A DNA stretch of 43,181 nucleotides from Candidatus Methylacidiphilales bacterium (lineage in GTDB: Bacteria; Verrucomicrobiota; Verrucomicrobiia; Methylacidiphilales; JAAUTS01), in assembly GCA_028713655.1 (NCBI GenBank), contig JAQTNW010000029.1:1-43181 (forward strand). The letters run 5' to 3'. The position numbers and the translations under genes were made by a program. Below, in pieces: positions 36,194 through 39,153 of this stretch. The notes under the pieces were generated by a model. It ran no database searches. It had not been told where the DNA came from and saw only the letters and a program-made list of their open reading frames with translations. The first letter of the stretch is position 1. Each line of letters starts with the position of its first letter.

Positions 36194-36276
36194 ACCTGGC
36201 CTGGCTTGCGCTGGCAGAGCTTTGCCTTGCTTCTGACTCCTGAATTCTGACCTCTGCCTTTTCTCCACGTCCTTCG

Positions 36277-36354: not shown

Positions 36355-39153
36355 ATGCCTGAACTCGCCAAAGCGTACGACCCCTCCCTCGTGGAGGACA
36401 AACTCTATGCCCGCTGGCTGGAGCAGAACAGCTTCCACGCCGACCCCGGCAGTTCCAAGCCGCCGTATTCCATTGTCATCCCCCCTCCCAACGTCACTGG
36501 CGTGCTCACCATGGGGCATGTGCTCAACAACACCATCCAGGACATCCTCATCCGCCGGGCGCGTCTCCAGGGCAAGGAGGCCCTCTGGCTGCCGGGCACC
36601 GACCACGCCGGCCTCGCCACGCAAACCGCCGTCGAAAAAGCCCTCCGTAAACCCGCTGAACTCCCGGCCAACGTGCGCGAGGTTTTGGAGTCCCTCGACC
36701 ATGTCTGGGACAAGGCCGCAGGCAAACCCAAGGCCCCGCTCACCCGCCACAACATCGGGCGCGAAGCCATGCTCAAGCTTGTCTGGGCTTGGACGAAGGA
36801 CCGCGGCGGCATCATCATCCAACAGTTGAAAAAACTCGGCTGCTCCTGCGATTGGAAACGGGAACGTTTCACCATGGACGAAGCCTATCACCGCGATGTG
36901 ATTAACGCCTTCATCACCCTCTACAAAAAGGGCTACATCTACCGCGGCAAACGCATGGTCAACTGGTGCCCCGCCTCCCACACCGCCCTCTCCGACGAGG
37001 AGGTCATTCCCACCCCGCAAAAAAGCAAGCTCTACACCATGCGCTACGAGATCGCGGAACTGCCCGGCCAATTTTTGGAGATCGCCACCACCCGCCCGGA
37101 AACCCTCATGGGTGATTCCGCCGTGGCCGTCAATCCCACCGACGAACGCTACAAGCATCTCGTCGGGAAACATTGCTGGCGCCCTTTCCCCCGCGCCCAA
37201 ATCCCCATCATCGCCGACGCGCATATCGACCCGGCCTTCGGCACCGGCGTGCTTAAAGTCACCCCCGCGCATGACAAGGCCGACTTCGAGATCGGCCAGC
37301 GCCATCAGCTCCCGATCATTGATATCCTGCACTGCGATGGAAAAATAAATTGCCCGGCGGTACCGGAACTCGACGGTCTCGACCGTTTTGATGCCAGGAA
37401 AAAAGCCGTGGAAATGCTCCAAACCGGCGGCGCATTGGTGAAGGAAGAAGCCTACGAGAACAATATCGGCTTCAGCGAGCGCGGACAGGTGCCGGTCGAG
37501 CCGCGCCTTTCCGAGCAATGGTTCCTCGACTACCGCAAGATGCTTAACGGCCGGATGATCGAGGAGGCTCTCGCAACCGTCCGGGACAAGGTCATTCGCT
37601 TCTATCCGGATCGCTGGGAAAAAGTCTATGCCCACTGGCTGGAAAACATTCAGGACTGGTGCCTCTCCCGCCAGGTCTATTGGGGCCATCGCATCCCCGT
37701 TTGGTATCATTACCCAGGTAGCTCTAGTATTAGACCAGACAATATATCTATTCGTGATTACATGGACAGACCGGATGCTGGCAAATTACAAGAAATACGT
37801 GTACAAATGGACTCGCCAGGGATAGATTGGATACAAGATTCCGACTCGCTCGACACCTGGGCTTCCTCCTGGCTCTGGGCCTATGCCACGATGGACACCA
37901 AAACCCGGAAAAAATTCTATCCCACCAGCACGCTCGTCACGGGCCCTGACATCATCTTCCTTTGGGTCGCCCGCATGATCATCGCCGGCCTGGAATTCAA
38001 CCCAGCGGAATCCGCCGCCGCTCCCGGAAGCCCCGAATACGCGCAGGCCAACCGGGCCTTCCAGGATGTTTATTTTACCGGCATCATTCGCGACCATCAG
38101 GGCCGGAAAATGTCGAAGTCGCTCGGCAATTCCCCCGATCCGCTGGATCTCATCGCCAAGTATGGCGCCGACGGACTGCGCTTCGGCCTGATGCGCATCG
38201 CGCCGCAGGGTCTGGACATCCGCTTCGACGAAAAACAAATCGAGGAAGGCCGGAACTTTTGCAACAAACTCTGGAATGCCTGCCGCTTCCGCGCCATGCA
38301 GGGCCCCATCGATCCCAAGGCCGATCCGTTCGGAAAAAAGCTGACACCCTACTCGGCTCATCTGCTGGCACGGCTCGACAAACTCATCGACACCGTCGAA
38401 GCCGGATTTGAAAAATACGAGTTCAGCGCGGTCGCTTCGGCCATCTACGGATTTGTCTGGGACGATTTGTGTTCGCGCTTTCTGGAAACCGCCAAGGCCG
38501 ATTTCGCGGATCCCGCATCGCCCACACGGGCAGGAACGCTCGCAACCATCGACCATGTGTTGTCGCAAGTCTTGCGCCTGCTTCATCCCTTCGCGCCGTT
38601 CATCACCGAGGAAATCTGGATCGAACTCGGCTTTGCCACGGAAACCATCCAGTTCACGGATTGGCCGGTTAAATCCGGCAAAGCGATTGACTCCGTCGCA
38701 GTTGAGTATGCGGACAAGACCTACGCGCTCATCGACGCCTCGCGCCGCCTGCGCGGCGAGTTCCAGATTCCGCTGGGCAAAAAATTGGATTTCAAACTGC
38801 ACAGTGAAAAGGCTCTTTCACAATCGGAACTGGCCCTGCTCAGTCCGTTGCTCGGCGCGCAATCGCTCGAAATCATCAGCGCACCCCTGGCAAAAACACC
38901 CGTCGCGCTCACGCCGTTGGGCGATCTCTATCTGCCGTTGACCGGGCTCATCGACGTCGAAAAAGAAAAGCAGCGACTGGAAAAAGAAATCGCCAAGGCC
39001 CAGGCTTCGCTGGAACGGGAATCCAAAAAACTCGAGAACACCGCCATGCTCGCCAAGGCCCCGCCGGAGAAGGTGGAAGAATGGCGCGCGCTCAAAGCCG
39101 AGGCCGAATCGCAACTGGCAAAGTTCCGAGAGCAACTCGTTTCGCTGGGTTGA
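36355..39153 (+). CDS. valS: valyl-tRNA synthetase
   Basis: This 932-residue class I synthetase has its HIGH-type motif as HVLN (55-58, in TMGHVLNNT) and KMSKS near 585-589. The editing domain carries TTRPETLMGD, and CSRQVYWGHRIPVWY-like LSRQVYWGHRIP precedes the second half-motif. The C-terminal coiled coil (LIDVEKEKQRLEKEIAKAQASLERESKKL) is that of ValRS. Residues about 452-496 (37708-37842) use codons unlike the rest (AGA, ATA, TTA, CAA, AGT) and depart from the family. The frame is intact. A hairpin terminator follows the stop. Confidence 0.96.
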   Translation: MPELAKAYDPSLVEDKLYARWLEQNSFHADPGSSKPPYSIVIPPPNVTGVLTMGHVLNNTIQDILIRRARLQGKEALWLPGTDHAGLATQTAVEKALRKPAELPANVREVLESLDHVWDKAAGKPKAPLTRHNIGREAMLKLVWAWTKDRGGIIIQQLKKLGCSCDWKRERFTMDEAYHRDVINAFITLYKKGYIYRGKRMVNWCPASHTALSDEEVIPTPQKSKLYTMRYEIAELPGQFLEIATTRPETLMGDSAVAVNPTDERYKHLVGKHCWRPFPRAQIPIIADAHIDPAFGTGVLKVTPAHDKADFEIGQRHQLPIIDILHCDGKINCPAVPELDGLDRFDARKKAVEMLQTGGALVKEEAYENNIGFSERGQVPVEPRLSEQWFLDYRKMLNGRMIEEALATVRDKVIRFYPDRWEKVYAHWLENIQDWCLSRQVYWGHRIPVWYHYPGSSSIRPDNISIRDYMDRPDAGKLQEIRVQMDSPGIDWIQDSDSLDTWASSWLWAYATMDTKTRKKFYPTSTLVTGPDIIFLWVARMIIAGLEFNPAESAAAPGSPEYAQANRAFQDVYFTGIIRDHQGRKMSKSLGNSPDPLDLIAKYGADGLRFGLMRIAPQGLDIRFDEKQIEEGRNFCNKLWNACRFRAMQGPIDPKADPFGKKLTPYSAHLLARLDKLIDTVEAGFEKYEFSAVASAIYGFVWDDLCSRFLETAKADFADPASPTRAGTLATIDHVLSQVLRLLHPFAPFITEEIWIELGFATETIQFTDWPVKSGKAIDSVAVEYADKTYALIDASRRLRGEFQIPLGKKLDFKLHSEKALSQSELALLSPLLGAQSLEIISAPLAKTPVALTPLGDLYLPLTGLIDVEKEKQRLEKEIAKAQASLERESKKLENTAMLAKAPPEKVEEWRALKAEAESQLAKFREQLVSLG

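What the first reader, a model, noticed from the sequence alone, without database searches (positions are those of the whole stretch)
37708..37842. Foreign-looking codon patch inside valS
About 45 codons use AGA, ATA, TTA, CAA, GTA and AGT, which are rare in the rest of valS, and G+C drops to an estimated 42% against well over 55% around it. The patch sits between the CP region (LSRQVYWGHRIPVWY) and DTWASSWLW. The frame is intact. It suggests gene conversion from a distant valS, or an inserted segment.
Basis: seen in the sequence. Interest (0 to 1): 0.5.

Follow-up and report, generated by a model that had tools for sequence, protein, structure and literature searches.

The report
AT-rich insert in ValRS hotspot loop
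The odd patch is a short extra segment, written in unusual codons, inside a variable loop of the essential enzyme that loads valine onto tRNA; in related bacteria the same loop has taken in other DNA of many kinds, in two cases a whole transposase, with the enzyme's reading frame kept open.

Summary
Bases 37708-37842 are 41.5% G+C against 60.3% and 58.5% on the two sides, and synonymous choice is extreme (GC3 10 of 35 codons in the insert, 26.4 expected). Of 125 native-like ORFs of at least 300 aa in 443 kb, only valS has such a window. The patch coincides with about 25 extra codons in a loop between RIPVWY and LDTWASS; the commonest length of that loop is 23 codons. A homologous AT-rich insert occurs in G001 (same family, other genus). 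It is absent from the genus that the rest of the gene joins to G000 (AU test against G000+G001, p 0.011). So it is an in-frame insert; gene conversion from a distant valS is not shown, and no donor was found. In class Verrucomicrobiae the loop is very variable: 170 distinct loops of 23 to 266 codons, among them heptanucleotide repeats, palindromic repeats, two RAYT transposases and two LPD3 domains. In some families it is long but stable. Short intragenic REPs are known; whole RAYTs nested in frame in essential enzymes (ValRS, LeuRS, CarB, PriA, ClpB) I did not find in print. Whether the window's own patch is a mobile-element scar is unproven.

The parts
36355..39153 (+). valS, valyl-tRNA synthetase, 932 aa (start MPELAKAY)
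   Evidence: ORF; Pfam PF00133, PF08264, PF10458; best PDB match 1gax ValRS
37666..37704 (+). conserved left flank SRQVYWGHRIPVW
37705..37848 (+). variable loop, 48 codons here; 23 codons is the commonest length among the loops read
37708..37812 (+). insert proper: GC3 10 of 35 codons; about 25 of these codons are extra relative to 23-codon loops (exact ends not resolvable by alignment)
37813..37842 (+). end of the AT-rich patch, over the conserved SPGxxWxQD segment (4 of 10 codons GC-ending)
37849..37878 (+). conserved right flank LDTWASSWLW

Best explanation
The patch is an in-frame insert of about 25 codons in a permissive loop of ValRS, at the place where Thermus thermophilus ValRS aligns a CxxC...CxxC segment. 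In this class of bacteria the loop repeatedly takes in-frame inserts of many kinds. The insert came from AT-rich DNA that was not native valS sequence, and it keeps unusual codons. Shown: the extra codons, the codon anomaly, similarity of the insert to that of G001, absence from G002 and G003, variability of the loop. Inferred: that the peptide is made and tolerated as a surface loop without a catalytic role, and that its source was AT-rich non-coding or mobile DNA. Not known: the donor, and whether G000 kept it from the family ancestor or got it more recently. The first three rivals are alternative histories of the same insert, so the odds overlap.
For: AT-rich codons coincide with the extra residues. 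G002 and G003 of the same family have a 23-codon loop with normal G+C. Over 170 distinct loops the length runs from 23 to 266 codons; six of the eight genomes of genus g13 could be read and have 23, 24, 33, 41, 43 and 56 codons, and five genomes of g70 have 23, 32, 33, 35 and 259. Some long loops of recognisable repeat origin are also shifted to AT-ending codons (heptamer loop of G291 down 29.0 points), and G000 is the most extreme of the 170 (down 40.9), G001 second (down 29.6). Insert similarity G000-G001: z 5.3, 0 of 2000 shuffles. T. thermophilus ValRS aligns a CxxC...CxxC segment here.
Against: No copy of the insert was found elsewhere in the genome as DNA (best other match E 1.4) or protein, nor in phages and plasmids, so the source is unproven. 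The insert has no period-7 repeat (z 0.2), no unusual hairpin (z -0.73) and no Pfam domain of its own (one sub-threshold hit, E 0.055). If it was inherited from the family ancestor it should have drifted to native codons: four-fold sites G000-G001 are saturated (38.9% identical, 38.0% expected by chance). A long loop need not be an insert: Akkermansiaceae keep 44 codons and family f20 keeps 40, without period-7 repeats where tested, and the mean GC3 shift of the 70 loops of 33-60 codons is only -7.9 points against -2.2 for the 64 of up to 25. The ancestral length was not reconstructed. Loops were found by reading one frame between the two anchors, so a loop out of frame would have been missed. 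No structure prediction could be run.
Confidence: 0.7

Rival explanations
1. Local exchange: G000 received the loop by homologous recombination from an unsampled, AT-richer relative carrying a G001-type loop. Crossovers lay in the conserved SRQ..RIPVW and LDTW blocks.
For: The rest of the gene joins G000 to G002/G003 (91/97 in the careful tree) and rejects G000+G001 (p-AU 0.011; group chosen after the first tree was seen), yet of these only G001 has a similar insert. The codon anomaly in G000 is too strong for an old native segment when synonymous sites are saturated. In residues 486-515 G001 is the most similar sequence (82.2%).
Against: No donor among the listed matches from 384 class genomes. 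Similarity to G001 is not raised in 501-530 or 426-455. The G000 and G001 inserts are themselves strongly diverged. Loss in the G002/G003 genus explains the distribution too; G000 and G001 also share about 7 extra residues near 554-560 that G003 lacks.
Confidence: 0.25
2. Old inherited loop: present in the family ancestor, lost in genus g3, with AT-ending codons kept by selection or by a local bias (for example slow codons at this point).
For: G000 and G001 inserts are similar beyond chance and both loops are AT-rich (41.7% and 37.8% G+C); a second shared longer loop. Weaker similarities of the G000 insert to G010 (z 3.6) and G039 (z 2.5) and of the G001 insert to an f20-type loop (z 3.0) would fit an older long loop.
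Against: In G001 much of the AT-richness follows from the residues (13 GC-ending codons of 32, 18.7 expected, P 0.02), so a maintained codon bias is weakly supported there. Short loops of the order show no comparable drop. The RNA of the patch folds no differently from shuffles.
Confidence: 0.25
3. Scar of a mobile element: the insert is the decayed remnant of a REP/RAYT or repeat element that landed in this loop.
For: The same loop holds heptamer repeats, palindromic repeats, RAYTs and LPD3 domains in other members of the class; G000 has 4 Y1_Tnp matches.
Against: No repeat copies, hairpin or period in the insert. G000 has no member of the nested RAYT subfamily at E 1e-30.
Confidence: 0.2
4. 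Assembly or chimera artefact.
For: The genome is a 90-contig assembly.
Against: Frame intact on both sides, and a similar insert at the same place in another genome.
Confidence: 0.02

Closest known systems
Rickettsia palindromic elements (RPE) and other intragenic REPs, including those of Opitutus terrae (PMC3733652: passages and section 15 read)
   Same: Short extra DNA inside protein genes, more than half of the inserts encoding 20-30 residues; reported in a verrucomicrobium and, in other bacteria, in tRNA synthetase genes
   Different: The window's insert is not a repeat in its genome, shows no palindrome and is AT-rich
REP-associated tyrosine transposases (RAYT, TnpA-REP; Pfam PF01797)
   Same: In G271 and G092 a RAYT flanked by repeat-like peptides occupies the same ValRS loop in frame
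   Different: Nothing of a RAYT is recognisable in the window's patch; RAYTs are usually described as separate genes (recalled)
ValRS of Thermus thermophilus (1gax), CxxC...CxxC segment
   Same: Same place in the enzyme, between the RIPxWY and DTW blocks
   Different: No cysteine pairs in the window's loop

Membership tests
Gene conversion from a distant valS | A donor-type valS with the same segment exists | tested here: not met
Gene conversion from a distant valS | Tree of the tract differs from the tree of the rest | tested here: inconclusive
   insert shared with G001, rest rejects G000+G001 (p 0.011), but loss in g3 also explains it; the tract is too short for its own tree
Intragenic REP/RPE element | In-frame extra segment within a conserved gene, absent in close relatives | tested here: met
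   absent in G002, G003; a similar one is present in G001
Intragenic REP/RPE element | Multiple copies in the genome | tested here: not met
Intragenic REP/RPE element | Palindromic structure | tested here: not met
   folding z -0.73
RAYT (Y1_Tnp) insert | Y1_Tnp domain | tested here: not met
   no PF01797 in the window's ValRS; met in the loops of L071 and L209 (E 4.1e-8, 1.4e-6)
Heptanucleotide tandem repeat insert | Period-7 self-match | tested here: not met
   z 0.2 in G000; z of 3 or more in 18 of the 30 long loops that I chose to test
Intein | Splicing blocks, at least about 100 residues (recalled) | tested here: not met
   insert is about 25 codons; no intein family in the Pfam scan

The most novel reading that the evidence does not exclude
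The patch marks a landing site in ValRS used by a system of mobile elements that live inside the reading frames of essential proteins. In Verrucomicrobiae a RAYT subfamily with stop-free repeat ends inserts in frame into loops of ValRS, LeuRS, CarB, DinG-type helicase, PriA, ClpB and others. The transposase is then made as part of a working housekeeping enzyme, which shelters the element from loss. Short inserts such as the window's would be non-autonomous relatives or scars.
Probability: 0.2. Interest if true: 0.8.

Novelty: new variant of a known kind. Interest (0 to 1): 0.5.

Why it matters
An essential enzyme loop that takes in unrelated DNA again and again, from a few codons to whole transposases, with the frame kept open is a natural domain-insertion experiment. 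It shows where ValRS tolerates additions, and it gives a directly testable case of selfish DNA inside essential proteins. It also warns that a codon-usage outlier inside a housekeeping gene need not mean transfer of that gene.

Tried and rejected
Repeat origin of the window's insert: no copies in the genome (DNA, protein), no tandem repeat there, no period 7, no unusual hairpin. Period-7 repeats in 443 kb of G000: none over the threshold apart from a run of N. Phage or plasmid origin: no match. Pfam hit fvmRadSAM-pep on residues 461-496: E 0.055, 14.1 bits against a cut-off of 27, not believed. Homology of the G000 insert with other loops: G010 z 3.6 (P 0.003) and G039 z 2.5 (P 0.015) in 10 comparisons, not taken as proven; G051, G036, G045, G030, an Akkermansiaceae-type, an f20-type and the L212 loop not above chance at P 0.1. 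Relaxed codon choice at variable sites as the whole explanation: other variable sites have GC3 65-70%. Structure prediction: the machine was busy on every try.

Coverage. Loops were found with a pattern for both anchors in one frame. Ten valS loci did not fit it and are not among the 170 (L124, L128, L129, L137, L141, L166, L250, L254, L274, L276); read they are in frame, 51-84 residues from SRQ to the end of the DTW block. Eighty of the class rows that one search listed without a locus were fetched; the other listed rows, and the rows cut from that list, were not. G004, G005 and G006 of the same family gave no ValRS stretch over the loop. In one search, 19 of the 20 regions fetched gave a frame of at least 700 aa with the HUH-like motif; L311 did not.

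Full report
What is in the sequence. valS lies at 36355-39153 on the + strand, with one match in the assembly at E 1e-60 or better. The patch 37708-37842 is 41.5% G+C, against 60.3% and 58.5% on its two sides. It is the lowest 45-codon window of valS in GC and GC3. In 443 kb of this genome, 1 of 125 native-like, mechanically called ORFs of at least 300 aa has a window this low in GC3, and that one is valS. Choice among synonymous codons is the anomaly: 10 GC-ending codons of 35, where 26.4 are expected from the residues and the rest of valS. Noncoding DNA in the same sample is 51% G+C, and 7.8% of its 135-base windows are at or below 40%, against 0.5% of coding windows.

What it coincides with. 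By its named relatives the genome belongs to Methylacidiphilales or near it, in class Verrucomicrobiae (inferred and matching contig lengths). ValRS of the relatives has a loop between RIPVWY and LDTW, most often 23 codons. G000 has 48, G001 (same family, other genus) 45, and G002 and G003 (same family, third genus) 23 with ordinary composition. G004, G005 and G006 could not be read there. The anomalous codons start with the extra residues and fade over the conserved SPGxxWxQD segment (4 of 10 GC-ending). T. thermophilus ValRS aligns a CxxC...CxxC segment at the same place.

History of the insert. The G000 and G001 inserts are similar beyond chance (z 5.3, 0 of 2000 shuffles). A tree of ValRS without the loop puts G000 with G002/G003 (98 in the quick tree of 46 rows; 91/97 in the careful tree of 13 rows) and rejects G000+G001 (p-AU 0.011; the group was tested after the first tree had been seen). 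So the insert was either present in the family ancestor and lost in one genus, or was exchanged locally, or was gained twice. Synonymous sites between G000 and G001 are saturated (38.9% identity at four-fold sites, 38.0% expected by chance). An old native segment should therefore have acquired native codons in G000, and it has not. In G001 the shift is weaker once residues are allowed for (13 of 32 against 18.7, P 0.02). This favours a more recent arrival or exchange in G000. But no donor was found: none in its own genome, none in the listed matches from 384 class genomes, none in phages and plasmids. Sliding identity gives no clear conversion tract: G001 is the most similar in residues 486-515 (82.2%; G003 71.1%) but not in 501-530 or 426-455.

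The loop is very variable. Over the loci read there are 170 distinct loops of 23 to 266 codons; the search read one frame between both anchors, so out-of-frame loops would have been missed, and 10 valS loci that missed the pattern proved in frame on reading. Six of eight genomes of genus g13 have 23, 24, 33, 41, 43 and 56 codons (two not readable); five genomes of g70 have 23, 32, 33, 35 and 259. Eighteen of the 30 long loops that I chose to test are heptanucleotide tandem repeats (z of 3 or more at period 7; three units of 7 bases make 7 codons), with different heptamers in related species. L090 and L107 carry the palindrome GCAGGCG-TGT-CGCCTGC, visible. G030 has the peptide VAVDLRAT in this loop and again in a second ValRS loop. 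Two loops, in G271 and G092, hold RAYT-like transposases (Y1_Tnp, E 4.1e-8 and 1.4e-6), and two, in G133 and G147, hold an LPD3 domain (E 2.8e-18 and 5.8e-11). Against a simple 'insert' reading of every long loop: Akkermansiaceae keep 44 codons and family f20 keeps 40, without period-7 repeats where tested, so in parts of the class a long loop is stable, and I did not reconstruct the ancestral length. The mean GC3 shift of the loop against its gene is -2.2 points for the 64 loops of up to 25 codons and -7.9 for the 70 of 33-60. G000 has the largest drop of the 170 (-40.9), G001 the second (-29.6), the heptamer loop of G291 the third (-29.0); by total G+C, G001 is first and G000 second.

A wider pattern seen on the way. 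With the ValRS-nested RAYT of G271 as query, 75 of 286 class genomes match at E 1e-30 or better; of the 150 matches listed (the list was cut), 47 lie in open frames of at least 700 aa, 14 in 400-699 and 89 under 400. I read 24 such long frames (5, 19 of the 20 regions), picked by frame length and by the PNHxH motif. Twenty-two of the 24 also have Y[IVL]xxN[PA] (motif meaning recalled). Of the 24, 16 were scanned with Pfam: 15 show Y1_Tnp at 1e-5 or better, and 13 of those have host domains on both sides of it (not L300, L301). Hosts: LeuRS (4, each time the editing-domain match stops at profile position 143-146), CarB (3, after the truncated oligomerisation-domain match and before the second half; L317 is the one without a Y1_Tnp hit), ValRS (2), DEAD/Helicase_C_2 helicase, DinG-type (2), PriA, ClpB, HsdR, a DNA methylase, and L301 with only a sub-threshold second hit and a masked tail. 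DnaE (L293) and a further DinG (L294) were recognised by eye only. Genomes and cases were partly chosen for being nested, so these are not rates. In an earlier listing by the Pfam model over 141 class genomes, which shows only the strongest matches, just one listed match lay in a frame over 700 aa; the nested copies score lower against that model.

Known and not known. PMC3733652 (passages and section 15 read) reports REPs inside genes, with the highest number of GTAG-type ones in Opitutus terrae (Verrucomicrobia) and of CGTC-type ones in Rickettsia conorii; [quoted passage not shown] So short intragenic inserts in this phylum are a known kind. I found no report of whole RAYTs nested in frame in essential enzymes, nor of the ValRS loop as a hotspot, in the listings of nine searches of the open library and in passages of PMC6006769; most subscription papers are not in that library.

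Verdict. The reading 'inserted segment' is supported; 'gene conversion from a distant valS' is not shown. The window's patch itself is an AT-rich, in-frame loop insert of unknown donor. Its interest comes mainly from the variable loop in which it sits.

Noticed in passing
L295 (G271), L296 (G092), L292, L293, L294, L299-L310, L312-L318: A RAYT transposase subfamily sits in frame inside large host proteins (ValRS, LeuRS editing domain, CarB, DinG-type helicase, PriA, ClpB, HsdR; DnaE by eye); 47 of 150 listed matches lie in open frames of at least 700 aa.
   Followed up: partly
L297 (G133), L298 (G147): LPD3 domain (PF18798) in frame in the same ValRS loop in two genomes of different families.
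   Followed up: partly
L109-L111, L113, L114, L116, L118, L119, L121-L123, L126, L131, L155, L158, L159: Heptanucleotide tandem repeats in frame in the ValRS loop of Chthoniobacterales/Spartobacteria-type genomes, with different heptamers in related species.
   Followed up: partly
L021 (G030), L018 (G051), L298 (G147): A second ValRS insertion site near residue 232 of the window's protein; in L021 both loops carry VAVDLRAT.
   Followed up: no
L006 (G001): The ValRS match of G001 contains two in-frame TGA codons: assembly error, frameshift or a broken gene.
   Followed up: no
G013:C12:171589-173826: The best ValRS match in this same-order genome is only 31% identical to the window's, which suggests a different valS there.
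   Followed up: no
window 36232-36259: Upstream of valS the intergenic DNA has, by eye, a weak heptamer-like run (TCTGACT CCTGAAT TCTGACC TCTGCCT), like repeats in valS loops of relatives; the period-7 scan did not report it.
   Followed up: no
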